A stretch of 64,000 nucleotides of DNA, from NCBI GenBank assembly GCA_008729055.1, contig SDUX01000010.1, forward strand, positions 2,123,090-2,187,089, read 5' to 3'. Source of the stretch: Pyropia haitanensis (Eukaryota > Rhodophyta > Bangiophyceae > Bangiales > Bangiaceae). The stretch's first letter is position 1. Each line of letters begins with the position of its first letter. The position numbers and the translations under genes were made by a program. Positions 15,438-58,413 of the stretch are shown one piece after another. Below the pieces are notes generated by a model that was not told the DNA's origin, did no database searches, and worked only from the letters and a program-made list of their open reading frames with translations.

Positions 15438-15446
15438 GGAGGTGTG
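15438..15446 (+). repeat. Candidate target-site duplication, left copy
   Basis: GGAGGTGTG. The identical 9-mer occurs at 30882-30890. Both copies lie exactly 5 bp outside the shared GGATAATACC core. This symmetry is what is expected of a transposition footprint. Confidence 0.6.
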
Positions 15447-15474
15447 AGGCGGGATAATACCAGCCTTGGGATTC
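15447..15474 (+). repeat. Left terminal inverted repeat
   Basis: Core GGATAATACCAGCCTTGGGA starts at 15452 and continues TTC. These 23 bp are matched perfectly by the reverse complement of 30854-30876. Immediately inside, GGGATTCTG..CAGAATCCC forms a small hairpin (15468-15490), and a second CCTTGGGATTCTGG copy follows at about 15494. Confidence 0.75.
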
Positions 15475-16500
15475 TGGACGTCAGAATCCCAAGGTCGCCT
15501 TGGGATTCTGGGAGGGGGTGGGAGGGGGTGGGGGGGGGGAATGGGAGGGTAAGTTTACCAATTATACTTCATATAACTTTTTTTCTTCATTTGAAACCAG
15601 AATTCATTTCGTACGCTCCTTTCACTCATATCTGTCGTCGATGCTTTTTCCGTTGGCCACAGCCGCGCGTCTGCCAGCGTTCGCTTCGACTGTGGCCCGT
15701 CTCGTGCCGCGTCCTTCGTACTGCCTGATTCCTCGAGTATGCCCTCGACACGCTGGCCACGGCCTGGCCCCTCGAGCCGGCCTTTGACACTCTGGCCGCC
15801 GCCGGATCCCTCGGCCTGGCCCTCGACACGCTGGCCTCCGCCGGGGTCTTGCAGGCGTCACCCATCCAGTCTGACAGTCTTCCACGTGCTGGCCGTTCGA
15901 CACTGGAGAGGGGTCACCTGTCTTGGCTGATAGAGCGTTGAGAGCCGCGATTTTTCCAGGCGTCTCCTGGGCAGCTTTGGGCCAGAGTGTCGTCATCAGA
16001 GCGACTCAGGGTGTGCGGCCTGGGAATACGTTTGAGAACGTTGCCGCCCGCCCTTCGGTGGGGACCGGGGCAGCGAGGCGGTGCGCCTGATTCAGACGAA
16101 AAAAAGTGCGTACATTACAGTGTGACATGAGCGCACAGGAGAGCTCGCACACGACGGCGCTGACAAAAAGCGCGCGCTGCGATCGCCAGTTTGAGTCCCT
16201 GCCCCCGTGTGCGTGACTTCCTCGTTGCGTCAACTGCGGTGGGGGCGCGCCCGCGCGGCCGTCGCATTAGCATCGCGTGTTGCATTGGCGGGGCGCTCTC
16301 CGCAGCACACGGCGGCGGGAGCGCCGCTGGGCGTGTGCCAGCCGCGGCCAACGCCGGCGTCGCCAGGCGGCGTGGCCGTCCGTACGGCCCGCCCGGTTTT
16401 GCCGCCCCTGCCGCACCACCGTCGTGCCCGATGCCCGACGGGTGGTTGTCGACTTGGTACGGCCGCCCCTGAGGGCGGTGCTGCACTCTTGGCACCTCCG
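15475..16500. other. Left subterminal region with degenerate repeat
   Basis: G-rich then AT-rich leader (15500-15620). At 15739-15845 a degenerate repeat built on CTCGACACGCTGGCC / TTTGACACTCTGGCC would encode an ALDTLA-type helical repeat in one frame that has no ATG. It looks like a gene relic or subterminal repeat, not a gene. The 15.9-16.2 kb part shows nothing I can assign. Confidence 0.4.
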
Positions 16501-19500
16501 ATGGGTCCCGGCGTCGGCGGCGGAGTCGGCGGCGGCGTCGGTGGCGGGGGCAGCGGCGGCGTCGGGGGCGGGGGCAGCAGCAGTGACGGGGGCGGGGTCG
16601 GGGGAGTGGACGGCTGCGGCCGGGTCGTTGGCAACGGGGTTGGGGGCTGGGGCGTCGGCGACGGCAGCGGCGGTGACGGGGGCGGCAGATCTACCACGAC
16701 GGGCGGTCCGCCCGAGTCCGAGTCGGTGGTACCGCTGCCACCCTCCATCACTCTCCCCGCGACCGGTAGTTGCCCGCGGCCGCAGTCCCCTATCATTGCG
16801 CCACGTCGGCGGGTGATTCTTCTCCCTTCTTCTGCACGGGGCATCCCGCCGGCGTGCTTCTCTCTCTCGTTGGCACCCACTGGTCGAGTGCCTGCTGCGG
16901 TGCGGCCTCGGAGCCCCCCCCGCGTCTCCCGATCCTCCGTTTTTGTGCGTCGTGCAGCGCTTCCCTTTCTCCCGGCGTTCTCCATCAGAAGCGAGCTGTA
17001 TGAGCAGAATGGGGCGGACGTGAACGGCCTTGAGGACAACGGCAACCCACATGGGGGGCAGAGGCGCAAGGGAGGGTCGCACGACAAGGGGGGGAGGCCG
17101 GTTGGCACTCGGCGCTTTACGCGTGAGACTCTGTCGACGGGGTGCAGCAAGGCGATGGCAATGGCTGTGTCCAAGTACGGGGTGGAGCGGTTTTTGAGCA
17201 AGGTCAAGACCCGCACGACCTGCGAGCTGAGCGAGGAGGAGTTCGCCGCAAGCCTGTCGCTGATGTCAAGCGTGTCGTGCCGGGGGGAGGTGTGGCCGCT
17301 GATGCACGTGTTTGGCTTCTTCTCTAAGTTCGAGGGCGGCATGGCCAGCGTCGTCGGCGAGCGCAATGTTGCGTGCACGTGGGTGGGGCGGAATGGCCTC
17401 ATCAACTGCAGCTGTCAGGGCAAGACACAGCTCTTTTCCCTCATGAGGAGGCCCGAGAAGGACGCGGCCGACATGCAGTGCACCCACGGCATTGCCATGG
17501 CAAAGGCGATCCGCAAGCTGACGCGTGTGCTGCGCGTCGACGCGCGGTCGCTGCGGGCGGTGGCCGGCAACATGCACCGGAGGTGCATCTCGCGGCATGA
17601 GCCTGATGTTGGAGGAGACGGTGGCGACGATGGCGATTGCGAGCGTTTTGTCGTCGGGCAGTCGGTGTTTGGCATTGCCGTCACCGGCTACGGCGACCAA
17701 GTCGTGGCCGCCCCCGTCCACTTCAACCGCAAGACGACCGCATGCATGCTATGCGACACAGCGCGCACGGAGGCGTGCTCCCACGTGTCTCTGACGCGCC
17801 ACTTCAGGCGCTCCGTGAGGCCCCGCGTGCAGGGTATCAACTCGACGCAGACGGCCGGCACCAAGGCGACGCAAGTGGAGGGCGACGAGACGGAGCAGCA
17901 GTCGGCGCCCGGAATGGACGCGGTCTACAGCGAGGAGGACGTGACGCAGTCCGTGTCCCAGAAACCGATCGGCCTGTTTAACTGCCGGAAGGCGATTGAG
18001 GTGGACGAGGCGATTGGGAAGGTAGTGGCCTCGGGCGGCGTCTTCCACGTACCCGCACCCCCCTGCTGCCCAAAGTGTGGCACCGTGCGCGGCTCGGCTG
18101 CGGACGTCAGCACCGAAAGCGTCGTCCTCTGCACTGCTGGTCCTTGCGGCATGCGTGTTGGAGCGTACCTCTGCCCAGCCGACAACTGCGGCGAGTGGGT
18201 GAGCGCGGACGGCGCGAAGGAGGGCGTCGTCATCTACACGCAGTGCACGGCCGCATCGGCGGTGCTCATGCGGCAGTGGGCATTTGCGCTTGTGCTGGAC
18301 GGCGCCACCTATGCGTCGTCCTTCGACTCCTGGCGCCGGCTGTACCTCGACCGGCGTGACGCCGGCAAGGCGTCGGCCAGCCGCCTCCGAGGGCGGCAGA
18401 CCATCAACAAGGTCTTCAATGCGGCAGTGCGGCTGATGAGCGACGACCCCCCGCTCTGGACCTTCAAGTGCAGCGCCTGCCAGGACAAAGACGGGCGCTT
18501 CCGGGTGGTTACTGCGGATGGTATCTGGCTGGGCTTTCTGCGACGCCTGGCGACCAAGCTGTACAACAGTCCCTGCCAGCCCTGCAAGTCGGTGCCCGAG
18601 TACGTGCGCGCAGGTGGCCTGTGCGGATCGGAGGCGGTCAGGCGTTTCATCAGGCTGGCCCTCAAGCAGCCCGCCAAGGCCGTGGTGATCCACACCAACC
18701 AGTTGGCCAGCGCCGAGAAGGCTCTGTTCTTCCTCTGCCCCGGCGCGCTGCCTGCCAACCGCGTCGCCGCCTTTGAAGAATTAGAGAGCAACAAGATGGC
18801 TGCCCTCCACGCGCTCATTGCTCGTGTGTGGTTGCTGGAAAAGGCGGTCGTGGAGCTTTCGCGGGGCATCATCAAGCGCATTCGCCACGTGCTGGCGCAC
18901 GAGGTTGCCAACACCCGCCCCGCGCATCGTGTTGACTCTGACGTGGCAACTGTCGCTCACCTGCGGGACTGGCTCGAGGGCGTCGCCCCTGCCGCTCCGG
19001 TGCCGGCGGCCGCTGACAGCTCGAGCGAGGCCGGTTCGGACGGCGAGTCATCAACAGGGCAAGCAGCGCCTCTGCTGCCACCGCCGCCGCGTGCTCCGCG
19101 GCGAGGCCGTCGGGGTGGCGGCGTGGTCGGGCGCGGTCGTGGTGGGGATGGCAGTGGGCACGTTCCTGGCGTAGCTGTGCGCGCCGGTCGCGAAGCGGCG
19201 GCGGCGCGGCGGCGCCATGAACACGTGACGGTGTCCGAGCCTTCTGACCCGCGCTGCCTGAGGCCCGAACTCAAGCAGCTTGGGGCGGACCAGTTCAAGC
19301 CGATCGTCTCGTTCTGCGTCGCCCTCGCCACAGACGCAGTCGTCAACATGTTCAAGCCCCGGCACATGGAAGGCATCCAGGGCATTGCGGACGACCTGAC
19401 GGCCGCTGACGCGGCGTTGCGGGTTGACACCATCCTGGGCAACGCGTGCAGTCCTGATGCTCGTCGCGCTCCCGCCCCTGACGCTGACGCGGCGCCCGAC

Positions 19501-20541
19501 CCCAACCTGACCCTGTCCGCGGCCAAGGCGCGTGTGACGCACGAGCTGCGGCTGGTGATGGCCTTCATCCTGTCGCTGCGCCTCAATGAGCCGGTCTTTG
19601 AGTTGTTGCGGGCTCCGGCGGCCTCGGCGTTGCGCGCGGTGTGCAACACGGTCGACGACTACCATCTCCCCAGGGAGGGGGACGACGGCTCGGCGTTGGA
19701 GTTTGGCGCCCAGTGGCTGGACCCGTCGCTGACACCGGACCAGCTGCTGGAGCGCTTCCGCTCGCGCTTTCCACAGGAGTCGGATGACCCGATGGTCACC
19801 GGCTGCTTCTTCCCTGGCTTGTTTCAGTGTCGCCCGTGCCCCTTTGCGCCGGGCGAGAATCCGGAGCTGGGGATGTGTGCCAAGAACTACCAGGCCCTTC
19901 ACCAGTCCTTCTCCCCCGGGACGTTCACTGTGTGTTGTGCCTGTGCCCATCCCAAGCTCATTGGCTTTGTGGTGCTTGACAAGCGCGAGGGGCCGTATGC
20001 ACTGCTGAATGCCATTATCACCCGCTTTGCATTGCTGCCCCACTTTGTAGTGTATGACTTTGGGTGCGGTGCCCTGCGTAGTGCCGTCGGCAAGCTGCCG
20101 GTGTTTGTCGCTTTGGTCGTGATCATCTCCGACATGTTTCACATTGTCAATCACGTTTGCAGTGACATCTTCAACCCCCGCTCGTACTCTCCACTAGACG
20201 GCAAGAACACCGTTGCACACGAGCAGCGTAACTCCCCCATCGCGGCGATGATGAGGACCCTGCGCGCGAGCGGTCAAGATGAGTATATGCGCATCATGAA
20301 GCTGCACACCATCATCCGTAACGTGCACGCGCAGGCGCGTGGCACGTGCACCTACCCACTGCCCGAGGACTACAACTTCCGCCAATTCTACTTGTCGAGG
20401 CAGCCTTGCGTGTGCGGTTGTGGGCAGGAAGAGGAGGAGCCACCCCTGCCAAGCCCGCCTTCCACAGTGCCATCCACGCCTACCGTCTCCACACCCACTG
20501 AGTCGGCGACCGATTCGAGCGTGACGTCGGGCAGCGACTAG
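16501..20541 (+). CDS. KDZ-superfamily (HMGXB3-like) transposase
   Basis: About 1346 residues from the in-frame ATG at 16501. Start uncertain: the first 200 residues are Gly-rich, and conserved-looking sequence begins near 17110. Order of parts: a SWIM-like zinc knuckle (C-S-C..C-T-H, about residues 300-327), a second Cys/His motif (CMLC..CSH, about 415-428), CxxC clusters (CPKC about 525; CSAC..C..C about 660) of the kind tied to KDZ transposases, a Glu/Arg-rich linker, then a catalytic-type core. The core has YDFGC (Asp 1186), DMFHIVNHVCSDIF (Asp 1211), and LDGKNT followed by HEQRNS (Glu 1241). Such proteins cut and paste DNA between terminal repeats. No intron, frame intact. It is the first gene inside the candidate element and reads away from its left end. 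Family assignment is from motifs; activity is inferred. Confidence 0.78.
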   Translation: MGPGVGGGVGGGVGGGGSGGVGGGGSSSDGGGVGGVDGCGRVVGNGVGGWGVGDGSGGDGGGRSTTTGGPPESESVVPLPPSITLPATGSCPRPQSPIIAPRRRVILLPSSARGIPPACFSLSLAPTGRVPAAVRPRSPPRVSRSSVFVRRAALPFLPAFSIRSELYEQNGADVNGLEDNGNPHGGQRRKGGSHDKGGRPVGTRRFTRETLSTGCSKAMAMAVSKYGVERFLSKVKTRTTCELSEEEFAASLSLMSSVSCRGEVWPLMHVFGFFSKFEGGMASVVGERNVACTWVGRNGLINCSCQGKTQLFSLMRRPEKDAADMQCTHGIAMAKAIRKLTRVLRVDARSLRAVAGNMHRRCISRHEPDVGGDGGDDGDCERFVVGQSVFGIAVTGYGDQVVAAPVHFNRKTTACMLCDTARTEACSHVSLTRHFRRSVRPRVQGINSTQTAGTKATQVEGDETEQQSAPGMDAVYSEEDVTQSVSQKPIGLFNCRKAIEVDEAIGKVVASGGVFHVPAPPCCPKCGTVRGSAADVSTESVVLCTAGPCGMRVGAYLCPADNCGEWVSADGAKEGVVIYTQCTAASAVLMRQWAFALVLDGATYASSFDSWRRLYLDRRDAGKASASRLRGRQTINKVFNAAVRLMSDDPPLWTFKCSACQDKDGRFRVVTADGIWLGFLRRLATKLYNSPCQPCKSVPEYVRAGGLCGSEAVRRFIRLALKQPAKAVVIHTNQLASAEKALFFLCPGALPANRVAAFEELESNKMAALHALIARVWLLEKAVVELSRGIIKRIRHVLAHEVANTRPAHRVDSDVATVAHLRDWLEGVAPAAPVPAAADSSSEAGSDGESSTGQAAPLLPPPPRAPRRGRRGGGVVGRGRGGDGSGHVPGVAVRAGREAAAARRRHEHVTVSEPSDPRCLRPELKQLGADQFKPIVSFCVALATDAVVNMFKPRHMEGIQGIADDLTAADAALRVDTILGNACSPDARRAPAPDADAAPDPNLTLSAAKARVTHELRLVMAFILSLRLNEPVFELLRAPAASALRAVCNTVDDYHLPREGDDGSALEFGAQWLDPSLTPDQLLERFRSRFPQESDDPMVTGCFFPGLFQCRPCPFAPGENPELGMCAKNYQALHQSFSPGTFTVCCACAHPKLIGFVVLDKREGPYALLNAIITRFALLPHFVVYDFGCGALRSAVGKLPVFVALVVIISDMFHIVNHVCSDIFNPRSYSPLDGKNTVAHEQRNSPIAAMMRTLRASGQDEYMRIMKLHTIIRNVHAQARGTCTYPLPEDYNFRQFYLSRQPCVCGCGQEEEEPPLPSPPSTVPSTPTVSTPTESATDSSVTSGSD

Positions 20542-21838
20542 GCGTAGATGGACGTGCCGGTGGCGCTGCTGGTGGAGACCGTCGAGGCGGCTGCTTTGGC
20601 GCCTCGCGTTCCCGCGCAGCGCACGTTGTAGTAAACTTTTTCCTGGCGGCGCGCAGCCGCAAGCCCGACTGCCTCTCATGGACGATACGAGTGGATACGT
20701 TGGGTATACCCCCAGGCATCTGAACATAAATGGCATATTGTCTGTCACCGCCCCCCGCACATCCACCCATCCCGCCGCCCCATCCCACATAGATTCCCCC
20801 CAGAGAGCGTCGGGGCGGCGGACGCGGCGCGCCAGCGCCCCGGCCGGCAGCCGCACTCGAACGGTGGCGGCTGTGGGGCGGGCCGCGAGCCCTAGCGGCC
20901 CCGCATCAACCAACACTCGGCAGGTGGCGAGGAAGGCGTCCTCCTCGGTCGCGGACGCCGCGGCGGCGGCCTCCTAGCGAGCCGCAGCCGCGGCAGCTGC
21001 CTCGTCGGCAGCCGCCTAGCGCGCCGCAGCCGCGGCAGCCGTACCTCGGCGGCCACCGAGGCGGCCGCCGTAGCCGCCGTCTCTGCCCGCTCCCGCCCCG
21101 GCTGAAGATTGCGGGCGGCACTCACCGCCAGGGACGCAGCCGGCGCGTTGTCTTGTTTCGCGCTGACGGCGCGGCCCTCGGCCGCCGCCGCGGCGACCGC
21201 CACCCGCGCCGCGTCCGCCGCGGCGGCAAGGTCCGCCACCGCACCGTCCACGACCCCCACTCCGACCAGCGGCCCTGACGCGGCGCCCGCCGCCACCTTG
21301 CCGCCACGTCCAGGCTTGGCTCGACCCCGTCGCCCCAACCAACCCTCGTGGCAATCCGTCGTCGGGTGGCGGCGGCTCGACGCCCCAGCTGATGGTCGCC
21401 ACTCGCGGGTGGCAGGGGGGAGAGGGCAGCGTACAGGCCCGTTGCCTGGTCAGACGGCATGCGTCGACGCCTGCGCTGTCCCAGGCGAGAGAAGCGGCGC
21501 CCCTGGACGCCAGCCGAGACAACAGTAGTGGCCGAGCGGCGCCCGAAGAACTGAAAGCCAGCCGTCGAACGGCGGAAAGCACTGGAGTGAGCGGCGCCGC
21601 GAGGAACAAAAGCGTTGGCACGCAGGCAGTGGGGGTGGCAGTTGGGAGCAAGATGGAGGGACGTGGCCGCGGACAACGCGTTGACAATGACAGACCAGAA
21701 CAAATCTGTCCCAATTACGAACTTCATTGGACCACAGCTGACAGACATTATCCTAGAAACGCCAGAATAGGATCAGGAGCACGCCATGTAAGTGCAATCT
21801 CCGCCCAGATTGTTGCAGGCTGGACTTGCTCTGAACCA
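20542..21838. other. Spacer between transposase and palindrome
   Basis: Holds a short AT-richer patch with GTATAC (about 20700-20750). It also holds a local tandem repeat of the GCCGCAGCCGCGGCAGC theme with interspersed TAG stops (about 20970-21060). Open frames are broken or Ala/Arg-rich. No gene was recognised. Confidence 0.45.
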
Positions 21839-22599
21839 CAAACGGCGCTTCCTTCTGTCGTACAGCAACCGGCGTCCCCCCGTCCCGCCCCGCAAAGACG
21901 GGGCACCCCCGCTGGCCGCACCCGACTGGAAACCAATGTGCATGGTATGCGGCTTGTTCCGTTGCGGTTTCAGGCCGCCCACGCTTGGAACAGAGCGCAA
22001 CCGCCGGGTAGTGGCGGTGCGTCGGGCGCCCTCGTGGGCTTCCTTCCTGGCTGCTTCTCTCACAGTGACGGCTGGGGGCTCTTTTTTGCGTTGACTCTGG
22101 GCAAGTCGACCATATCGTGTCCAGTGGTACCCACTTTTTCGTTCAGGTCCATGGTGGGGGCGGCAAATGGCTGGTTTGGGCACGAAATGAGCACCAGGGG
22201 GGAAGGTAGCGAGGGGACTGCGTGGGACACAGGTCTGAGTACGGGGGCGACCACAGACACTGCATGCTTCTTCAACCGTTGTGTTCCTCTTTTGGCCTGT
22301 ATGCGTTCCGTGTGGACGGAGCCCTCTGGTGCAGAAGACAGAGGCCTGCTGAGAGGGAAAGGCGCCCCAGGGGCACCGCTGGTGACTTTCAAACTCTTGT
22401 TTCTGTGCCGCCAACAACTCTGACCGCCGAAAGCCACTGTTGCGCTACAGATACACTGGTGCTTGTCCATACTGGGTCGTAGGAGCACGGTAGGTACACG
22501 TCGTGCCATGGGGGTACCGTGCAGGCGCTGTTTGACAGTGTTCCCGATGTTTGTGGACTGTTTGAAGTGTACAGGCGTTTTCAGCGCCTTCTCTTTGGT
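21839..22599 (+). repeat. Left arm of 761-bp near-perfect inverted repeat
   Basis: Pairs base for base with 22744-23504 (coordinates sum to 45343 with no gap). I found only isolated mismatches, for example near 21865 and 22580. Composition is about balanced, unlike the surrounding DNA. Frames on both strands are open but match no family I know. Confidence 0.92.
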
Positions 22600-22743
22600 A
22601 TGCACAGTGCCAATCCAGAAAGAGTTCGTCATACATCCGAGACAACCTACCTCTGCCCCTGAGTGGCATTACAAACCAAGGTGACCGCGACAGGTACGCG
22701 TCGAACAAAGTGACACTCTCTGTTTCAGAAGCAGTGGACACTG

Positions 22744-23504
22744 ACCAAAGAGAAGGCGCCAAAAACGCCTGTACACTTCAAACAGTCCACAAACATCGGG
22801 AACACTGTCAAACAGCGCCTGCACGGTACCCCCATGGCACGACGTGTACCTACCGTGCTCCTACGACCCAGTATGGACAAGCACCAGTGTATCTGTAGCG
22901 CAACAGTGGCTTTCGGCGGTCAGAGTTGTTGGCGGCACAGAAACAAGAGTTTGAAAGTCACCAGCGGTGCCCCTGGGGCGCCTTTCCCTCTCAGCAGGCC
23001 TCTGTCTTCTGCACCAGAGGGCTCCGTCCACACGGAACGCATACAGGCCAAAAGAGGAACACAACGGTTGAAGAAGCATGCAGTGTCTGTGGTCGCCCCC
23101 GTACTCAGACCTGTGTCCCACGCAGTCCCCTCGCTACCTTCCCCCCTGGTGCTCATTTCGTGCCCAAACCAGCCATTTGCCGCCCCCACCATGGACCTGA
23201 ACGAAAAAGTGGGTACCACTGGACACGATATGGTCGACTTGCCCAGAGTCAACGCAAAAAAGAGCCCCCAGCCGTCACTGTGAGAGAAGCAGCCAGGAAG
23301 GAAGCCCACGAGGGCGCCCGACGCACCGCCACTACCCGGCGGTTGCGCTCTGTTCCAAGCGTGGGCGGCCTGAAACCGCAACGGAACAAGCCGCATACCA
23401 TGCACATTGGTTTCCAGTCGGGTGCGGCCAGCGGGGGTGCCCCGTCTTTGCGGGGCGGGACGGGGGGACGCCGGTTGCCGTACGACAGAAGGAAGCGCCG
23501 TTTG
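22744..23504 (-). repeat. Right arm of 761-bp near-perfect inverted repeat
   Basis: Reverse complement of 21839-22599. The two arms are separated by a 144-bp unique loop (22600-22743). Whole structure is 1.67 kb and could extrude as a hairpin, or represent two inverted copies of a small element. Confidence 0.92.
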
Positions 23505-23814
23505 AGATAGCCCAAAGCTTGTGGTTTTCTAGCAGGCTACTTGAGGTTTGGATGAGCCAGATCGGAAGAATTCGTCCATTTGGGCTGGTCGTGGTCGTTG
23601 GCCAGTGTCATGTTTCACCAGAACCAAGGACGTTGGCCAATCTTTTCAGTTTTATGGGCACGTTTCCGGTCTGGATGGTTGCACGGGATCGCCTGCGACG
23701 TTTCCTGCCGTTTTGCCGCCAGATTGCTGCTCGGGAGGTGTGCGCCTTTGCCGTCTCTTCTTGTCTGGCACGGCAGTCCCCCAGCGCTTTCCCCCGCTCT
23801 TTCCCCGCACCACG

Positions 23815-25295
23815 ATGGACACAACTGTGGCTTCGTTTGATTCGGCGCAGCGTGCCGTTTGGGCGTCTTTCCTGGGTGGCAAGAACGTGGCTATTTTGGG
23901 TCCCGCAGGCTGCGGCAAGTCCCGCGTCCTGCATCCCTGCATCGCCGAGGCGCGTCGGCGTTATGGTGATGAAGCCGTCCTCATCATGGCCTGGACTTGG
24001 GCGGCCGCGTATCAGATTGGCGGGCGGTCGTACCACTCTTACTTGGGCATCAGCCCCACCGAGTACTCCAAGCAGCGGACGCTCGAGATGGTTCGGGCCA
24101 ACGCGCGCATTCGCGTCAACTTGGAGCGGTCGCGGGTGGTGATCATCGACGAGGCGCCGACCATGACCAGCCATCACTTCGCTCTGCTGGAGTACGTGCT
24201 GCGCTCCTTGTCCCCTGCGCACATGCAGGGGACGCCCTGGGGTGGGCGCCAAGTTATCTGTACGTGTGGGTGCCAGCGCTCTCTGATTTTGTCTATCCGC
24301 TACTTCTTTGTTGTCCTCCTTGTCAAGCTGGTCTCTATCTCCATTGTACACGATACTAACGCTGTGGTGTGCGCTGTCTTTGGCTTTTTGCTTGGGCCCC
24401 GGTTGCCTTGTTTCTGGCTTGGGTGCCCCGAAGAGCAGTGGCCGGAGATCCATGCCAGCTCGGTGCCGTACGCCACGCTGAGAGCGACGCGCAGCCGTTC
24501 ATGTATGAGACGGTGACCTGGCGCCAGACTATGGGAGGCGCGTGGGGCACCACGCACGTCCTGAGTGGCGCGCACCGCCAGGCCAATGACCCGGGGCTGT
24601 TGCACGCGCTGCGCCGCATCCGCGTCGGTGAGCAAACCGACGCGGACATCACTATGTTGAACGGCACGTCGGTTGGGGTGTCGGACGCTGTGTGGAGATC
24701 CCACACCCAGGTGCGCGCAACAAACAAGGCTGTGGACGAGGTGAACAACAGGTGCCTGGCGCAGTTGCCCAGCCCAGCTGCCAGCTACTTTGCCCAAGAC
24801 CAAGTCTTTGTCGAGCACCCAAGGCGCCAGCAGTACGCGCTAACTCGGCTGGAGGAGATGGCGGCGGTGCACAAGGTGTTCAAGATTGGGGCTGTGGTGA
24901 TTACGTCGCGCTTCGTTGAGTCGGTGCCCTCCGGCTCGCAGGGGAAGGTCACTGGTCTGGTTCCCGACGATTGCGTCGTCTGTGACTTTGGGGGTACGGA
25001 GGTGCGCGTGCGGGCGTGCGCGTTTGACGTGACCGACAACTGCGGGGTGAAGCTAGGGACACGCAGGCAAATTCCGCTCGTGTTGGGGTGGGCAGTGACG
25101 ATCCACAGGTGCCAGGGGCTCACCCTAGACACGCTTGCGATTGATTTTTCCGTCCAGCATTGGCGGAAGGAGGGCCTCGTCTACTCTGGGTTGTCGCGCT
25201 GCCGCAGTTTGAGTGGGCTATTGGTGCGTGGTTTGCGGCACGAGCTTGTTGTCGTGAGTCGGCGCGCCATAGACTTCTACAATGCCCTCCTGTGA
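23815..25295 (+). CDS. PIF1-like DNA helicase, two exons
   Basis: Read as join(23815..24259, 24439..25295), 433 residues. ATG 23815 sits in CACGATGGAC. Exon 1 carries Walker A GPAGCGKS (residue 29) and Walker B VVIIDEAPTM (Asp 112). The intron 24260-24438 (179 nt, GTACGT..CAG) splits the PIF1 motif so that splicing gives GGRQVILAGDPCQLGAVR; unspliced, the protein would stop at 24516. Exon 2 has the SF1B C-terminal motifs TIHRCQGLTLDTLAID and YSGLSRCRSLSGLLVRGL. PIF1-family helicases unwind DNA 5'-3' and resolve G-quadruplexes and forks. The protein is compact, with no extra domain such as a Helitron Rep. It lies inside the candidate KDZ element, between the palindrome and the minus-strand unknown gene, so it may be element cargo rather than a host gene. 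Confidence 0.85.
24260..24438 (+). other. Spliceosomal intron of the PIF1-like gene
   Basis: 179 nt, GT..AG, phase 1, with a T-rich 3' half. Predicted from restored continuity of the conserved GGxQVIxxGD motif across the junction. Confidence 0.8.
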
Positions 25296-25491
25296 TGTTT
25301 GTCGCTGGGTGCATCTTGATGAGCGGGCATGTGTGCATGTTGTGGTGCATGTCATTGTGCATGCCATTCGTGTTTTCTGTCAATGCTTTCTTGTGCGTGT
25401 TCCAGGAGAGCGCGTGTGTTGCCTTCAACAAAAGAGACCATCCTTTCGTCGTGCAAAGTCGCTTTTGATCAACACAAACAAGCACTCTACG

Positions 25492-28085
25492 TCATCGTAT
25501 GTAAAGAGCATGCCAGAGAAACAATCGCATCAAAGGAGCAGAGCCAGGACCGACACCACACGCTTCCCTCATGGTGGAGGGCGCAAAGTCTGCGAAGTGC
25601 ACCTTCTTCTGGTGTTGATAGGAAGTCGACTCGTACAGCAGCGTCTTGAAGGGATAGTCCGCGTGCTCCTGCCCCGCACTTGGGACCACACCGTACACCT
25701 CCACGGCGGGCATCCTCTGCGTCACGAGCTCGACATCCGCGTCGCTGCACTGGGGTGGTGACAGCCGCCACACGAGCCCGGTTCCAAGCAGCACTCTGTT
25801 GTCATCAGCCGCCGGCCGATCGTAGAGGTTGACTCGTTTTCTGCACCGATAACCAGACTCAAAAAAACATACCAGTAGCTGGGAGACAAAGCTGCTGTCA
25901 GTAGCAGCTCCCAGCGTCATGAAAAAAGCAAGCAGCGACGTCAAACCAGCCAGCGGCGCAGCCGAACTTACCCGATGGATGCGACAGTCCACACGGATCT
26001 GGTCATGTTGGCACAGTGAGCCAGTGTGGTGGGTCCTGGGCCAGCACCACGTGGCTCCAAGCAGTACTCGGGGTCGAGGGCAAAGGGGTACTGCAAACAT
26101 GAGGCACCAGGGGCAAGTTGCCCCAAAAAGACAGACACCACGTCAGAGCGCATAGCGGCACCATGGTAGTCGGCCAGACCCGGGCATATGGATCCTGTCC
26201 CGACGAGGGCGCCATCCATGTACACGGCGGAGGCGACGAAAGAGGCCACCTTCCGCTCGGCCTCCTCAATCGACCTAGCAGCTGCTGCAGCAGCCGCTGC
26301 AGATGCAGCATTGGCACCACCGCGGGCGCCCTCTTTGTGGGCAGCACCCCATCCTCCTCGACCACGACCCCGGCCGCGTGGACCAGCGGACGCGCCGCCT
26401 TCCCGACCACTAGGTCCCAGTCCCCCACCGCGGTGTGTGGTTGCCGCTTCCCCACCACCACCGCCGGCTGCTAAGCCTCCACCCCCGCGGCCATCGGAGG
26501 AGCCGCCGCGCTCAGCTCTGGCAGCCACGCCGGCCACCCTGTCGCCGGCCGACACGTCGACACCCCCGCCGCCCACGGCCGCGCCAGCTTCCCCACCACC
26601 ACCGCCGGCTGCCAAGCCTCCACCCCCGCGGCCATCGGACGCACCGCCGCGCTCACCTCTGGCGGCCACGCTGGTGTCCCTGTCGCCGGTCGACATATCG
26701 CCAACCCCGCCGCCCTCGGTCGCGCCGTCGCCCCCACTGTTGTCACGTGTACCTCCACTTTCACGTCCACCGGAATCGGCGCCGACGTTGACACCATCAC
26801 GAAGATCTTCACGTCCGACGCCATTGGCATCGGCGCCAGCACCGCCACTTGCGACACCAGCTGACGTCAGTGCCTTGCCCGCCTTGCGCTTCTTGCCCAC
26901 CTGGCTGGGCGCCGCATCCCCAATGACAGCACCGCCTTGGAAGTGGCGGAGGAGGGACATGAACGCAGTGTCGTTCAGGTGGACCATCAAAAGGACGACG
27001 GCCAGACAGCGAGGGACCTTGAAGTCGGCGTTATTGGCAAAGCGCGGCTCTGCCTCTGTGATCTTCGCGCCGCGCTTGCCCTTCTGCCACACGACGGTCG
27101 CGCCGCGGGCTACGTCGGGCGTGGCATTCTCAAATGTGTAGCGGATGCCTGTGCGCTTGGCGACGTTGAAGAGGTACAGGCTCATAAACTCAAACAGACG
27201 CGCGCCCAAGGCGCCCGCCCTCGTCGTGTTGTGCTTGGTGAGCGCGTCCGTCACCTGCTTGACGATGGTTGCTGGAATGATGTACTCACGCGCCGTGGCC
27301 GCCGGGGGGTCCACCGTCACTCCGTCGACCAGAGAGGGGAGCTGCAACCGTGGGGGCAGCTTTGTCAGCCACGGTATGAGCACGGGAAACGAGCTTCCCT
27401 GCGCGGGAGACCGTGGGCGAGGAAGAGGCGGTCGAAGAGCCAGCGCCGCGGCGCCACCTTGACCTCCTCCGCTGACCGAGCCACCGCCGGCGCCCCCCGG
27501 AAGAGTAGATGGCGCGACAGGAGGCAGACCGCCGAGCGGCGCGACAGTGGGGGGCCCAGCAGGTGGTGCTTCAGGGCGGGGTTGTGCAAGCGGCGCTGCC
27601 GAGGAGGAAGGTGCAGGCGGCGCTGATGAGGCTTGAGGGAGACGTGCAGGCGGCGTTGGTGGCGAAGCACTGAGGGGGGTTGGTGCCGCTGGCTTACCAG
27701 GCCGCGGCGACGGCGGCGGTTCAGGACGAGCGGGAGTGCGGCCGTCGACCAGCGAGGCATCAGCGCTGCCGTCGTTCCGGGGCCGCGGGCGTGGGCTCGT
27801 GGACGCGGCCACCACTTGTAGTGCCTGCACCATGCCGTCGACGCTGCTCGCGACTGCATCCAGCGCGACGTCAGACGTACACTCGGCCACGCCCGTCCCG
27901 TGCAGCACGTAGCCACCGACTCCCTCCCGCGGGCCGCACACAACGGCCAGCACCATGCGCCGCCCCAGCACGCTCTCCATCTTGGTGGCAACGAATTGTA
28001 AGACGTCTGCCAGCGCGGAAGCGCTGCTCGTGGGGGGGAAGCCGAGAGAAGAGAAGACGGAGCCACAGTCGCCGCACGCGTCCAT
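25492..28085 (-). CDS. Unrecognised two-exon gene in the candidate element
   Basis: Read as complement(join(25492..25840, 25972..28085)), about 820 residues from ATG 28085. The frame is open to 28163 upstream and the 5' end is uncertain. The donor (GTAAGT at 25966-25971) interrupts codon ATC-GG; the acceptor GGTGCAG ends at 25841. Splicing joins SVWTVASIG to KRVNLYDRPAADDNRV and keeps 115 more codons open. Visible parts: an N-terminal strand-rich segment (VLVVAMDACGDCGSVFSS..VVCGPREGVGGYVL), a Pro-rich linker, a conserved-looking domain (EYIIPATIVKQVTDALTKHN..FMSLYLFNVAKRTGIRYTFEN..KVPRCLAVVLLMVHLND), and a Gly-rich linker with a 47-residue repeat (26451-26720). A C-terminal domain follows (CLQYPFALDPEYCLEP..EVYGVVPSAGQEHADYPFKTLLYESTSY). 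I do not recognise the family. It is tail to tail with the helicase gene, only 196 bp apart, which suggests a shared unit. Confidence 0.6.
25841..25971 (-). other. Spliceosomal intron of the unrecognised gene
   Basis: 131 nt, perfect GTAAGT donor and pyrimidine-flanked CAG acceptors. An alternative acceptor (CCCAG about 50 nt upstream) would give a frame that stops after about 50 codons, so the longer intron is preferred. Confidence 0.65.
26451..26732 (-). repeat. 141-bp in-frame tandem repeat (47 codons)
   Basis: The CCCACCACCA block at 26451 recurs at 26592. The repeat adds two Gly-rich, Arg-containing units (SDGRGGGGLAAGGGGGEA core) to the unrecognised protein and keeps the frame. Confidence 0.7.
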
Positions 28086-29248
28086 GGCGACGACGAGAAC
28101 GGTGGTAGAACGAGGGAGGTTGCACAGAAGAGCGGGGAGCCGCCTTGGACGCTCAGCAGCCACGGTTGCGGCTGGTGTACGCGGGTCGTCGGCAACGGAA
28201 AGCGGCGGGTCAGTGCCGGTTGACAGGCCGCTGTGCGCTGGGGCGGTTGGACGACGGGTCGCGACGTGGCAGCCTCACCCGAGTCCCTCGCCGGCGCTAG
28301 GGGCATCCCGCCCTCCACACACCACCCAACATCCCCACCACCCGATGCTGTACGTACCCACACACACCCTCAGAGCCCACGCAACCCACCCATTGTTATG
28401 CATTGGTGGCACAGACGCGGGGCCCCATTGTCGGCTTTGAGACAGTGACGGCGCACGAGGCGGGGTCATTCGGTCGACGTAGAGTGGTGCGCAGGCTCGC
28501 CCACACCGCCTCGCGCCCTCGCGCGCGGCTCACGGATCTTTGACCGAAGGTACAGTACGCTGGTGCGCGGTCACGTACGTATGGCCATGCCCCACCAGCG
28601 GCCAAATTCTGACGTCGCTGTCGAGGGGCTTACAGGCGTTCTCTCTTCCTATCAACCCCCCCCTACATCTGGGCCGCCTCATGCGGCGAGGTATGCTCTC
28701 TACAGCAGCAGTCGTGAATAGCGACCGCTCAACCCATGTCGGACGCCACCGGCAGCCGCCGAGGCCACTTCCATCCGAGCACCCGCCGCAGCCATTGCCG
28801 CCCCCGGCTGCCGCCGCTGCCGCGGCCGCCCCGCGCCCGCCGTGGCCGCCCCCACCCCGCCAGCCGCCGCGGCCGGCCCCCCCCGCCAGCCGCCGTGGCC
28901 ACCCTTTCTCGGCAGCCCCCGCGGACGCGGCCGCCCCCCGACGCCCCCCGATTCCCCCCGGCGCGGCCGTTCCCCCCCGGCGGCTGCCACCCCCAGGGGG
29001 CTGCCACCCCCCGGCGGCCGCCACCGCCCGCGGCAATCACGGTCGCCACCCCCCAGAGGCCACCAAAGCCGCCCCCCCCCGGCGGCCACCACAGCCGCCC
29101 CCCCCCGGCAGCCACCACGGCCCCCCCTCCCCGCCGCCCCTCGCCGGCCCCCGCCGTCCCCCGCCGCCCGTTGCCACGGACGCCGTCCCTACCCCGGCGG
29201 CCGCCACGCCCCCCGCCGGCACGCGACGCTGCGGCGGGTGCCGGACGC
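28086..29248. other. Region upstream of the unrecognised gene
   Basis: AT-balanced to about 28740, then increasingly C-rich (Pro/Arg/Ala frames). May hold 5' exons of the minus-strand gene, since the likely protein continues above ATG 28085. No further gene was recognised. Confidence 0.4.
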
Positions 29249-30347
29249 CGGGGGCCGGGCGCCGGGTGCCGGGCGCCGGGTGCCGGGGCACAGGCGGCCG
29301 GGGCCGCGGGCCGGGCGGCGGCGGGCAGCGGGCGGCGGCGGGCGCCGCACGGCGAGCGACGCGCAGCGGGGGCCGGGTGCCGGGCGGCGGCGGGCGGCGG
29401 ACGGCGGCGGGCGCCGCGCGGCGGGCGCCGCGCGGCGGGGGCCGGGTGCCGGGCGGCGGCGGGCAGCGGGCGGCGGCGGGCGCCGCGCGGCGGGGGCCGC
29501 GCGGCGGGGGCCGCGCGGCGGGGGCCGCGCGGCGGGCGGCGGCGGGCGGCGGCGGGGGCCGCGCGGCGGGCGCCGCGCGGCGGGGGCCGGGTGCCGGGCG
29601 GCGGCGGGCAGCGGGCGGCGGCGGGCGCCGCGCGGCGGGCGCCGCGCGGCGGGGGCCGCGCGGCGGGGGCCGCGCGGCGGGCGGCGGCGGGCGGCGGCGG
29701 GGGCCGCGCGGCGGGCGCCGCGCGGCGGGGGCCGGGTGCCGGGCGGCGGCGGGCAGCGGGCGGCGGCGGGCGCCGCGCGGCGGGGGCCGCGCGGCGGGGG
29801 CCGCGCGGCGGGGGCCGCGCGGCGGGCGGCGGCGGGCGGCGGCGGGGGCCGCGCGGCGGGCGCCGCGCGGCGGGGGCCGGGTGCCGGGCGGCGGCGGGCA
29901 GCGGGCGGCGGCGGGGGCCGCGCGGCGGGGGCCGCGCGGCGGGGGCCGCGCGGCGGGGGCCGCGCGGCGGGGGCCGCGCGGCGGGCGGCGGCGGGCGGCG
30001 GCGGGGGCCGCGCGGCGGGCGCCGCGCGGCGGGCGCCGCGCGGCGGGTGGCGGCGGGCGGCGGCGGGGGCCGCGCGGCGGGCGCCGCGCGGCGGGCGCCG
30101 CGCGGCGGGTGGCGGCGGACGGCGGCGGGGGCCGCGTGGCGGGCGCCGCGCGGCGGGGGCCGCGCGGCGGGCGGCGGCGGGCGGCGGCGGGGGCCGCGCG
30201 GCGGGCGCCGCGCGGCGGGGGCCGCGCGGCGGGCGGCGGCGGGCGGCGGCGGGGGCCGCGCGGCGGGCGCCGCGCGGCGGGCGCCGCGCGGCGGGCGGCG
30301 TGCGGCGGGGGCCGGGTACCGGGCGGCGGCGGGCGCCGCGCGGCCGG
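29249..30347. repeat. GC satellite with 145-bp higher-order period
   Basis: Built of short GGCGGGCGCCGCGC / GGCGGGGGCCGCGC / GGCGGCGGGCGGC blocks. The rarer marker GCCGGGTGCC starts at 29441, 29586, 29731 and 29876, each exactly 145 bp apart. A variant (GCCGGGTACC) is at 30311, three further periods on. An earlier marker at 29372 is out of register. Every strand and frame is open because of composition; I do not call a protein. Confidence 0.88.
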
Positions 30348-30853
30348 GGGGGCCCCGCTGCAGGAGCCGGGGGCCGGGCAGCGCAGACCGCGATGGGAGG
30401 CGGGGCAGCCAGCGCGGTGCCGCGCACCCACGCTGGCACCGTGCGTGGGGGTAGGGCACGTGTCATGCGGCACGCGCACGCGGCCGGGCACGCGCCATGG
30501 CACGTGCCTAGGGCAGCCGCTGTCAGACGTGATGCTGCACTGCTGACTGGCACGGGGCCGTTTCGCAGTGACGTCGCGCGAGCGCGGCGGTCGCCAGCGC
30601 GACGGGCGCAGCCGTGGTGCGCGAGTGCGGCTCGCAGCGGATTGCGCTACCGAAGTGTACGGAAAAGAGAGGCTCCAGAGTTCTGTGCAAAAAACAATAT
30701 GGGCTGCAATGAGGACGCTGCTGCCGCTGCCAGTCCATGGATTTGAAGTCCATGCCGGGAAGTCCACCAGGTCCCTCCAGGGGGGCTCACGGGCCCCCCA
30801 CACGCACCCCTCGAATGCAGCGCCTGGTGGGGGGTTGGGATTCTGGACCTTGG
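30348..30853. other. Right subterminal region of the candidate element
   Basis: No gene recognised. Contains a 30730-30765 segment with the small inverted repeat TCCATGGATTTGAAGTCCATG. Confidence 0.4.
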
Positions 30854-30881
30854 GAATCCCAAGGCTGGTATTATCCTTCTT
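30854..30881 (-). repeat. Right terminal inverted repeat
   Basis: Reverse complement carries the 23-bp core shared with 15452-15474. The inner part forms a perfect CCTTGGGATTCCCAAGG palindrome. The outermost 5 bp (TTCTT on the plus strand) do not match the left end's AGGCG closely. Confidence 0.75.
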
Positions 30882-30890
30882 GGAGGTGTG
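30882..30890 (+). repeat. Candidate target-site duplication, right copy
   Basis: GGAGGTGTG, identical to 15438-15446, and the same distance from the terminal repeat. Confidence 0.6.
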
Positions 30891-31743: not shown

Positions 31744-31918
31744 CCGCTCTGCCTTTCCACACTCGGCTGATGACAGTTGTCGCTCTCCGCGCACGCAACG
31801 GGTCGTGTGGTGCGCAGGCGAGTGAGTGCAGGCGGTCGCCGTCGGGGTGGTGGCGTTGGTAGCGTTGGTCGTCCGTCTGCTCCGCGTGGTTGTGTGCCCG
31901 CCCCCGTGGTCGCCACGA

Positions 31919-34900
31919 TGCCCCGCCCGTCCATGGACGCGGATCGCCCGCCGCAGGTCCTGGCCACCCCGCCCCCCCCACCACCCGCCGCTACACCGTG
32001 ACGGGCCTGACGTGCCGCCGCTGTGTTGGCAGCGTGACGGCCGCCGTCGGCGGCCTGCCCGGCGTGACCGGGGTGGACGTGGACCTCGACACCGGCGCCA
32101 TGGCCGTGACGTACGCGTCGGCGGCGGCGGCGGCGGCGCCCGCCGCGGAGACGGCGGTCGTTGCGGCGGTGGTGGCGCTCGGCAAGGGCGCGGCGGCGGC
32201 GGGGCCCCCCCCCGCCGACACCCGCGCCTACACCGTCGCGGGCATGTCGTGTGGCCGCTGTGTGGCGGCGGTGCGCCGGGCGGTGGCGGCGCTCCCGGGT
32301 GTGACGGGGGTGGCGGTGGACCTCGCGGCGGGGTCGATGGAGGTGGTGTGGGGGGACGCCTCGGTGGCCGAGTCCCCCACCCAGCGCGACACGGCGGTGG
32401 TGCGGGCGGTGGCGGGGGTGGGCAAGGCCGCCACGCGGGTGGGTGTGGCGGCGGCGCCGGGCCGATCGCCGTCTGGCAGCGCCGACGCGGGCGACGCCGT
32501 CGCCGGGGCGGTGGTGGTCAAGGGCGGCGGCCGGCAGCCGCCGAGTACGGCGTCGTCGTCGTCGTCTACCGAGGCGGCGGTCAAGCGCCGCCGCGTGCGG
32601 CGTTTCAATTGTGGGTGCGGCACGTCAGAGTGCTGCTGCTCGGCGGAGCAGGTGCTCGACACGGACGTGGGCGTGTTTGTCATGCAGCACCGGGCGGGGG
32701 CGGTGGAGACGTCACCCCTGTCGTCGGTGACCGACGCGGACTGGGTGGACGATGACGTGCCGGGCGCGTGTGGCACCGTCGGGAAGGCGTGTGGGGATAT
32801 GCTCAAGTTGCCGCCGCCAACCAAGACGAGTGGCAAGACTATTGTCGCGGATGCGCTGGCGGGTGCGGCGGCGGGTGGCGACGGCGCCGCCAGTGACGCG
32901 GCGTCTGGGGCGGGCGGCCCCTGGGAGGTGCGTCTGTCGGTGACGGGCATGACCTGCTCCAGCTGTGTGGGCAAGGCCGAAGCCACCCTTACCGCCGTCC
33001 CCGGCGTGGCGGCGGCGCGCGTCAACCTCCTCTCTGGCCGCGCCGCGGTTACGATTACGGACGCGGCGCTGGTGGATGGCGCCGCGCTTGCCGCCGCGCT
33101 TGGCCGCAGCGGCTACACCGCGACGGTGCTGTCGCGCGGCGACGCGGCGGTGGCGGGGGCAGACACGGCGTTTCTGCGCTTCGCGTCGACCGCTGCCGCC
33201 GCCGAGGCGGTGACCCTCCTCCGCGCCATGCCGGGCGTCGCGACCGCGGAGCTGCTGCGGGGGGGTGCCGTCATTGGCGGCGCCAGCGGGTCGCCGTCGC
33301 CTGGGGGCGACGCCAACGACGACGTCGGCGCCAACGGCGACTCGATTGACGATGCGGAGCGGGTGGGCACGCCCGCCGCGGCGAGCGCAGACCCGCTGGC
33401 GGCGGCAGCCGACAACGAGGCGGGCGGCGTCCGCGGGCGGTGGGCGCTCCACCCGGCGTGGTGTGGCCTGCCGTGGCACCGCCGCGGCGGCCGCCGTGAC
33501 GCGCCGACGGTGCTGCGGGTGGTGGTGGCGGCGCCGCCGCGGGCGGCGACGGCGGCGCGGCCGTGGGGGCGCCTGGCACTCGAGGAGCTCCACGCGTCGG
33601 ACGCGGACTCGTCGTCGGACGCGGAGGGGCCGGCGGCGCGCCCGGCGGCGCCGTCGTCGCGCGCCGCGGCTTTGCCGAGCGAGGGCGGGCACGTTGACGG
33701 CCGCGCCGACGGGCAGTCGGACGAGCTCAGCCCCAAGATTGCGGTGGTCATGGCGTTTGCCAAGACGACGGGCGCCCACCTGCCGTTCACGGTGACGTCC
33801 CCCGCAGACGCAGCCGGCAGTGCCGATGACGACCCGCAGGCGGTGCTACGCCGCGCGGCGCTGCACTATCTCCACCTGTTTCTGTTTGCGTCGGTCTTTA
33901 CCGTCCCGCTGTTTGTGTTGACGATGGTTGTGCGTCACGTGCCCGCCGTCGGGCGCGTCCTGCACGCGTCCATCGTGGACGGCCGGGCGGTGCCGCTTCT
34001 GGACGTGGTCGCGTGGGTGCTCGCGACGCCCGTCCAGTTTTTGGCGGGCGCCGGCTTTTACCGCGGCTCTTACTACGCCCTCCGCCGCCGCCGCGCGTCG
34101 ATGGACGTGCTCATCGCGCTCGGCACGTCGGTCGCGTACGGCTTTTCCGTCGCGGTGGTCCTCTTCAACGCGATTCGCCCGGTGGGGGAGGGCCTCGCCG
34201 AGGCGACGGTGTTTGAGACGGCCGCCCTGCTCATCGCGATTGTGCTGTTTGGCAAGTGGCTCGAGACGCTCGCCAAGGGCCGCGCCGCGGCGGGGGTATC
34301 GGCGCTCGCCGCGCTCGCGCCGTCGGCGGCGACGGTGGCCGACGCCACCGGGCGGACGGTGCTGGCCGAGGACGTGCCTATTGGGCTGCTCTCTCCGGGC
34401 GACGTTGTGTGGGTGCGGCCCGGCGCCAAGTTTCCCGTCGATGGGGAGCTGGTGGGCGGCGGTGGTGCAGACGCGGATGGGGACGACGGTTCGGCCGCCG
34501 CGCCGGTGGCGGTGGATGAGTCGATGCTGACGGGCGAGGCGCGGCCGGTGGCCAAGGCTCCCGGTGACGACGTGTACGGGGGCACCCTCAACGCGTCGTC
34601 GGGCTTGGCCGTCGTTCGGGCGACGGCGGGCGGCGCGGACGGCGTCCTTGCGCGCATCGTGTCGCTTGTGGACGCGGCGCAGACGTCGCGCGCGCCTATC
34701 GAGGCGTTTGCTGACCGCGTCAGCGCGGTGTTTGTGCCCGCCGTTGTCGTGTTTGCGATCGCCACATTTGTGCTGTGGTACGGGCTCGCCGCCGGCGGCG
34801 TGCTGCCGGCCGAGTGGACCGCGTCGGAGGGGAACGTCCTGTTTGGGCTCCTTTTTTCGCTCGCCGTGCTGGTCATTGCGTGCCCGTGCGCGCTCGGCCT

Positions 34901-58330: not shown

Positions 58331-58413
58331 TGCTGCCGCGTCGTCGCACTACTGTGGTTGCTGCGTGATCTTCATTGTTGCTGGCAGCCGCGCTGTCCTG
58401 TTATTGCTGCGCC

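What the first reader, a model, noticed from the sequence alone, without database searches (positions are those of the whole stretch)
15438..30890. A 15.4-kb KDZ transposon that appears to carry a helicase and an unknown gene
Seen: a 23-bp end sequence (core GGATAATACCAGCCTTGGGA) at 15452 recurs in inverted orientation at 30876. An identical 9-mer, GGAGGTGTG, lies exactly 5 bp outside each copy. Between them are a KDZ-type transposase, a PIF1-like helicase and an unrecognised two-exon gene. Known: KDZ/Zisupton elements are large cut-and-paste transposons with short duplications of about 8 bp. Inference: this is one intact composite unit, in which a replicative-type helicase rides with a KDZ transposase. 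That combination would be worth describing.
Basis: partly seen in the sequence, partly recalled or inferred. Interest (0 to 1): 0.88.

Follow-up and report, generated by a model that had tools for sequence, protein, structure and literature searches.

The report
Algal KDZ transposon carrying a helicase
This is a large jumping gene in what looks like a red alga; besides its own transposase it carries a DNA-unwinding enzyme, and a second, separate jumping-gene family in the same genome does the same, which suggests that such elements may bring along a helper enzyme for moving.

Summary
Confirmed, with corrections. The window holds one 15,437-bp DNA transposon (15446-30882) with 23-bp inverted repeats and a 7-bp target duplication, GAGGTGT. 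The end occurs 57 times in the 52.9-Mb genome. Of 26 end-to-end elements, 25 have a 7- or 8-bp duplication. The other 25 share end regions with this copy but none of its three genes: non-autonomous derivatives. A relic on another contig matches its first 2.2 kb, transposase start included. The 1448-aa transposase misses Pfam's KDZ model but is homologous to a Pfam-positive KDZ transposase of the same genome. The helicase is an intact 433-aa PIF1-like protein with one intron. Decisive for the combination: a second KDZ family, 18.2 kb, carries its own transposase plus a different PIF1 helicase, in two 99.9%-identical copies on two contigs with different 8-bp duplications. Two more KDZ-PIF1 neighbour pairs exist, one with a KDZ match below cut-off; 6 of 10 KDZ hits have no PIF1 hit within 15 kb. 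I found no report of KDZ with PIF1 in the open-access papers searched. What the helicase does is inferred.

The parts
15439..15445 (.). left target-site duplication GAGGTGT
15446..30882 (+). whole element, 15,437 bp
   Evidence: ends fixed by 26 copies, length
15452..15474 (+). left 23-bp terminal inverted repeat, 6 bp inside the left end
15446..16002 (.). left 557 bp shared with other copies, 93.5-95.5% identical in the six copies compared
16195..20541 (+). KDZ-type transposase ORF, 1448 aa (stop to stop; start codon not settled); conserved strings VTADGIWLG, VVYDFGCG, ISDMFHIVNHVCSD and NTVAHEQRNS begin at residues 772, 1285, 1311 and 1338
21839..22599 (+). left arm of a 761-nt inverted repeat (3 mismatches between arms)
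   Evidence: only these two places match in the own genome
22744..23504 (-). right arm of the 761-nt inverted repeat
23815..24259 (+). PIF1-like helicase, exon 1
24260..24438 (+). helicase intron, 179 nt, GT-AG (predicted)
   Evidence: the relative P0039 reads through an extra stretch at the same place
24439..25295 (+). PIF1-like helicase, exon 2 (433 aa in all, plus stop)
25492..25840 (-). ORFX exon 2 (C-terminal 115 aa), unknown function
25969..28085 (-). ORFX exon 1 (N-terminal 705 aa), unknown function
28755..30882 (.). right 2.1 kb shared with other copies; holds a G-rich tandem array (29001-30000 is 94% GC)
30854..30876 (-). right 23-bp terminal inverted repeat, 6 bp inside the right end
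30883..30889 (.). right target-site duplication GAGGTGT

Best explanation
It is a large, apparently intact and autonomous cut-and-paste transposon of the KDZ superfamily that carries a PIF1-like helicase and a second, unknown gene. Shown: one insertion unit with inverted repeats and a 7-bp target duplication; a family of non-autonomous relatives that share its ends; a KDZ-homologous transposase; a helicase with its motifs in an open frame; recurrence of KDZ plus PIF1 in a second family that has jumped with both genes on board. Inferred: the transposase recognises the 23-bp repeat and the subterminal repeats, cuts the element out and inserts it at a 7-bp stagger, also acting in trans on the short copies. 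The helicase is proposed to help by unwinding DNA at the ends, which are palindromic and, on the right, extremely G-rich, or by helping repair or copying at the donor gap.
For: Ends and duplication. Short copies without the three genes. Relic with the transposase start behind the same end: 96.8% over 2.2 kb. Transposase homology to KDZ: BLASTP E 2e-13 and profile E 2.7e-13 against an ORF that passes Pfam's KDZ cut-off; KDZ-associated CxC4 cluster in 13 of 37 alignment members at E up to 0.1. Helicase. Second family with both genes, two insertions with different 8-bp duplications. Linkage: 4 of 10 KDZ hits have a PIF1 hit within 15 kb (2 of the 4 are copies of one element, 1 of the 4 is below Pfam's cut-off); 0 of 200,000 random placements reached 4. 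Not Helitron: only 2 Rep domains found in the genome, each 1.5-2 kb from another PIF1 hit.
Against: The helicase and ORFX block is single-copy at the DNA level in this genome (one further 72% match of 135 nt), so in this family their co-transposition rests on one pair of target duplications. Six of 10 KDZ hits have no PIF1 hit within 15 kb (three of these lie on contigs without any PIF1 hit), and none of the 3 CxC4 hits has one. So the helicase is optional. The two helicases are only 27% identical and the tree does not place the second. The CxC4 match examined singly is below Pfam's cut-off (24.8 bits against 26.9). Whether other copies of the transposase exist could not be searched at the protein level. 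No expression or activity data. The structure model gave no significant fold match.
Confidence: 0.85

Rival explanations
1. The helicase is not part of the transposon but a remnant of a Helitron or another element that landed inside a KDZ transposon.
For: Helitrons encode a helicase (PMC12730594, passage; PIF1 type recalled); large KDZ elements often carry nested insertions (PMC12477816, passage); a 761-nt inverted repeat lies between transposase and helicase.
Against: No Helitron Rep domain in the window; the two found in the genome lie on C9 and C8 beside other PIF1 hits. The protein is a short stand-alone helicase with its own predicted intron. A second KDZ family has its own PIF1. The inverted repeat ends before the helicase and shows no duplication at its borders by eye.
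Confidence: 0.08
2. The helicase is a neutral passenger captured by chance and has no part in transposition.
For: Six of 10 KDZ hits in this genome lack a nearby PIF1 hit; the non-autonomous copies move without carrying it; large transposons collect genes (PMC12477816, passages).
Against: Recurrence in a distinct KDZ family with a very different PIF1, and two further neighbour pairs; open frame and motifs; relatives at about 55-65% identity in other sources, one of them with an extra read-through stretch at the same intron place.
Confidence: 0.4
3. Two unrelated insertions or an assembly join placed the helicase and ORFX between two ends of the family.
For: The ends are abundant in the genome (57 sites), and one copy (L030) does look like a join of two loci.
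Against: The two ends are flanked by the same 7-mer (chance about 4e-4 at 78% GC) and are in the order left end, right end. Helicase and ORFX show the same longest-contig length (7502) in the protein database, which fits one contig but does not prove it.
Confidence: 0.04

Closest known systems
KDZ superfamily (Kyakuja, Dileera, Zisupton)
   Same: large transposase over 1000 aa with a homologous core; 7-bp (Kyakuja) or 8-bp (Zisupton, Dileera) target duplications; elements over 10 kb with accessory genes (PMC12730594 and PMC12477816, passages read)
   Different: accessory gene is a PIF1-like helicase, not the TET/JBP dioxygenase described in fungi; transposase falls outside Pfam's KDZ model; has a 23-bp inverted repeat although the Kyakuja families described there lack them
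AcademH transposons
   Same: a DNA transposon that encodes a helicase (one passage and a reference title in PMC10045372; the AcademH paper itself was not held)
   Different: different superfamily; 9- or 10-bp target duplications; helicase type not checked here
Helitrons
   Same: helicase in a mobile element
   Different: Helitrons encode it with a Rep nuclease (passages in PMC12730594 and PMC6431247) and make no inverted repeats or target duplications (recalled); no Rep in the window
Giant EnSpm/CACTA elements of red algae
   Same: red algal host, 16-20 kb, 4-5 ORFs (PMC6431247, passage read)
   Different: other transposase superfamily (by name; not compared by sequence here)
Dada transposons
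   Same: 6-7-bp target duplications (PMC3706591, passages read)
   Different: described as lacking terminal inverted repeats and as targeting small RNA genes; transposase not compared by sequence here

Membership tests
KDZ superfamily | KDZ transposase domain (PF18758) detected by the Pfam model | tested here: not met
   no Pfam family for the window ORF and no KDZ match for any of 37 alignment members at E up to 0.1
KDZ superfamily | homology of the transposase core to an accepted KDZ transposase | tested here: met
   E 2e-13 pairwise and E 2.7e-13 profile against an ORF with PF18758 at 30.5 bits, cut-off 26.6
KDZ superfamily | KDZ-associated cysteine cluster (CxC) | tested here: inconclusive
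   CxC4 in 13 of 37 alignment members at E up to 0.1, best 2.1e-5, which is below the curated cut-off; not in the window ORF itself
KDZ superfamily | target duplication of 7 or 8 bp | tested here: met
   23 of 26 copies 7 bp, 2 of 26 8 bp, 1 of 26 none
KDZ superfamily | RNase H-like DDE catalytic fold (recalled as the later view; a 2013 paper, PMC3706591, listed Zisupton as lacking DDE) | tested here: inconclusive
   model mean pLDDT 65, core mostly under 50; no PDB match at E <= 0.001, only unsupported retroviral integrase rows among others
Kyakuja subgroup | 7-bp duplication, CA..TG ends, no inverted repeats | tested here: not met
   7 bp met and one end begins CA, but the other begins GAGGC and there is a 23-bp inverted repeat
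PIF1-like helicases | PIF1 domain with Walker A, Walker B and later motifs | tested here: met
   PF05970 52.6 bits, cut-off 25.9; motifs located, their naming recalled
Helitron | Rep (HUH) domain | tested here: not met
   2 hits in the genome, none in the window
Dada | homology to Dada transposases | not tested
   only passages of PMC3706591 read
KDZ superfamily | actual cut-and-paste transposition | not testable with these tools
   -

The most novel reading that the evidence does not exclude
Some KDZ transposons of this lineage have, more than once, recruited PIF1-type helicases as working parts of the transposition apparatus, giving a helicase-assisted cut-and-paste system in which the enzyme opens the palindromic, G-rich ends or drives repair at the donor site.
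Probability: 0.35. Interest if true: 0.75.

Novelty: new variant of a known kind. Interest (0 to 1): 0.62.

Why it matters
The best-described gene cargo of KDZ elements in the papers I saw is the TET/JBP dioxygenase of fungi. A helicase that recurs in two separate KDZ families, one of which demonstrably moved with it, makes it testable whether eukaryotic cut-and-paste transposons recruit a helicase, as AcademH suggests for another superfamily. The system is convenient: one known candidate autonomous copy, many near-identical short copies with clean ends, and defined target duplications.

Tried and rejected
Rejected: 9-bp duplication (the termini in 26 copies place the boundary six bases outside the core). 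Nested Helitron. Empty allele: the joined flanks with one duplication are not in the own assembly at up to 3 mismatches, which says little. Viral contigs: 16 pattern matches, none a relative. Co-occurrence of transposase and helicase relatives on one database contig: no longest-contig length is shared between the two lists (by reading), and the two Porphyra proteins carry different scaffold numbers, so no support from there. Single-sequence structure model discarded (mean pLDDT 35); alignment-based model too weak in the core to use. Helicase tree: does not place the C2 helicase because of its long branch. PDB sequence search: two chance-level rows at E about 0.8. Against the hoped-for general link: 3 CxC4 loci of the own genome have no PIF1 hit near them. 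Rows left out of the 26: L035 (inner nested element at C4:642868) and the unpaired ends L036, L037 and L038. L036 has no further match to the elements tried at E up to 1e-15; L037 is a degraded 7.5-kb-type copy; L038 is the relic. L029 and L031 have identical flanks and the same duplication, reverse-complemented, as L016 (ungapped flank identity with L016: 0.77 right, 0.47 left), and L030 looks like a join, so independent sites are perhaps 23.
Full report
Setting. The window lies at contig C4:2123090-2187089 of a 52.9-Mb assembly in 136 contigs. The only named proteins among the 37 transposase hits are from the red algae Pyropia yezoensis and Porphyra umbilicalis, and one close helicase relative is from Porphyra umbilicalis.

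Observation. The 20-bp core is exact at both stated places in inverted orientation, with 0.01 expected by chance. The own genome has 55 exact and 2 one-mismatch copies and none of the reversed control. I fetched 26 end-to-end elements: the window copy, 23 single stretches (L009-L031) and two longer ones in halves (L032+L033, L034+L035). In all 26 the constant sequence runs six bases beyond the core: one end 5'-GAGGCGGGATAATACC, the other 5'-CAAGAAGGATAATACC (CGAGAA in L013). Directly outside lie 7-bp duplications in 23 of 26, 8-bp in 2 of 26 and none in 1 of 26 (L030). For the window this gives an element of 15,437 bp at 15446-30882 and the duplication GAGGTGT. A 7-bp match by chance at 78% GC has probability about 4e-4 per element.

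The family. Of the 26, 18 are 5.66-6.55 kb, five are 7.5-7.7 kb, and three are 13.5, 14.7 (with a nested member) and 15.4 kb. Six copies are 99.8-99.9% identical to L018 over their full length (two of the six, L029 and L031, may be one site), so movement was recent. With the window copy they share the left 557 bp (93.5-95.5% in the six compared) and the right 2.1 kb; the 7.5-kb type shares a further piece of about 160 bp (window-element positions 549-712) at another place (part of that call's listing, L017-L023, was cut, but one search compares all with two of the copies). A tblastn search of the fetched stretches with the window's transposase, helicase and ORFX finds none of the three in the other 25 elements. 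They are non-autonomous. A relic on C9 (L038) is 96.8% identical to the first 2,192 bp of the window element and includes 199 residues of the transposase at 95.5%, so the transposase sits behind the same end at a second site; the match stops there within the 8 kb fetched. The helicase-ORFX block is single-copy at the DNA level, apart from one 72% match of about 135 nt on C11.

Transposase. ORF 16195-20541 (1448 aa) has no Pfam match at E up to 0.01. The protein search gave 37 hits among 7,988 scored candidates, a capped list. In the alignment of the window ORF with P0001-P0036 (37 rows), ADG, YDF-CG, D-FH--NH-CS and AHEQRN are invariant or nearly so; by eye these hold the candidate D, D, E residues. 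Thirteen of 37 rows match CxC4, the KDZ-associated cysteine cluster, at E up to 0.1, though not the window ORF, and the best row is below the curated cut-off. Against the C2 ORF, which passes the Pfam KDZ cut-off (30.5 bits, cut-off 26.6), the window ORF scores E 2e-13 by BLASTP (29% over 191 aa) and its family profile E 2.7e-13, probability 98%. So it belongs with KDZ but in a branch that the Pfam model does not reach. A structure model of the relative P0004 was too weak in the core to help.

Helicase and ORFX. The helicase reads as 433 aa over exons 23815-24259 and 24439-25295 with a predicted GT-AG intron. Walker A, Walker B, GDPCQL, TIHRCQGLTLD and YSGLSRC are present (motif names recalled). 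It has 33 hits at E 2.4e-33 or lower, one of them the window's own, after which the scores fall to 4e-24 and general PIF1/RecD-like proteins (120 of 123 listed). ORFX, convergent with it, reads as 820 aa over two exons and has four hits: two at 100% and 98% identity and two at 58% and 44% over parts. No function is suggested.

A second KDZ family with a PIF1 helicase. Pfam KDZ has 10 hits in the genome, 9 above the cut-off, and PIF1 19; both are lower bounds. Four of the 10 KDZ hits lie 8-14 kb from a PIF1 hit (C2, C9, C8, and C4, the last below the cut-off); six do not. The C2 and C9 pairs are copies of one element. I fetched both: 18,247 and 18,248 bp, 13 mismatches and 5 gap columns, flanked by CCGTCCTC on C2 and GAAGCTCC on C9, 8 bp each, with an imperfect inverted repeat of about 54 bp. 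Inside are the KDZ ORF (795 aa, with a further ORF of 507 aa upstream after a stop) and a 1161-aa ORF that holds the PIF1 match. Two insertions with different target duplications show that transposase and helicase moved together. Its ends begin 5'-GAGGC and 5'-CA, as do those of the window element. In 200,000 random placements none gave four or more KDZ hits within 15 kb of PIF1; counting the 4 families that I grouped by equal or near-equal scores, three or more linked families arose 10 times (a linear genome without contig borders). Only two Helitron Rep domains were found, each 1.5-2 kb from another PIF1 hit, so the KDZ-linked helicases are not Helitron parts.

One acquisition or several. 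The window and C2 helicases are 27% identical, and the C2 protein sits on a branch too long to place. Separate recruitment is the simpler reading but one old origin is not excluded.

Mechanism. Shown: end structure, target duplication, relatives that share the ends, homology of both enzymes, joint movement in the second family. Inferred: the transposase binds the 23-bp repeats and subterminal repeats and moves the element by cutting and pasting with a 7-bp stagger, in trans for the short copies; the helicase helps at ends that are palindromic (GATTCTGGACGTCAGAATC) and, on the right, about 94% GC and G-rich, a substrate that PIF1 enzymes are known to unwind (recalled). A passenger role remains nearly as likely, since 6 of 10 KDZ hits here lack a nearby PIF1 hit and the short copies move without carrying one.

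Literature. Searches for Zisupton with PIF1 and helicase (2 papers, passages read, neither about the combination), KDZ with transposon, helicase and red alga (68 papers with at least 3 of 4 terms, 20 listed, passages read in PMC12477816, PMC12730594 and PMC6431247), red algal giant EnSpm (listing), Kyakuja (12 papers, listing; passages read in PMC12730594, PMC8226300 and PMC9297572), AcademH (listing; one passage), Pyropia with transposon or Zisupton (20 of 101 listed; passages of PMC3706591), PIF1 with DDE transposase and accessory (none), 'KDZ transpos' with PIF1 (none), Zisupton with accessory gene and helicase (listing) and KDZ with Chlamydomonas (listing) gave no report of a KDZ element with a PIF1 helicase. 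The library is open-access only; the founding papers on Zisupton, KDZ and AcademH were not read. Helicase-bearing transposons as such are known (AcademH).

Noticed in passing
58369-62598: A second, distant KDZ-type transposase ORF (1409 aa) in the same window; profile match to the first one's relatives E 4.7e-37, pairwise 31% over 251 aa. No Pfam match. Its ends were not sought.
   Followed up: partly
21839-23504: 761-nt inverted repeat with 3 mismatches and a 144-nt spacer between transposase and helicase, with no other match in the own genome and no target duplication by eye at its borders.
   Followed up: partly
28755-30882: The shared right subterminal region holds a G-rich tandem array, up to 94% GC in the window copy; short copies also match it in reverse orientation near their left end.
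   Followed up: partly
L016, L029, L031: Three copies may share one insertion site (same duplication, reverse-complemented; flanks only partly alike in an ungapped comparison), but L016 has a different interior, as if the inside had been exchanged at a fixed site, or haplotypes or assembly versions differ.
   Followed up: partly
L030: No target duplication; its left flank equals that of L020 over the 14 bases printed and its right flank resembles L022 (0.69 ungapped), as after recombination between copies or a misjoin.
   Followed up: partly
31863-36092: Heavy-metal P-type ATPase gene about 1 kb right of the insertion.
   Followed up: no
   Followed up: no
L034+L035: A 7.5-kb member is nested 83 bp from the right end of another member of the same family.
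   Followed up: no
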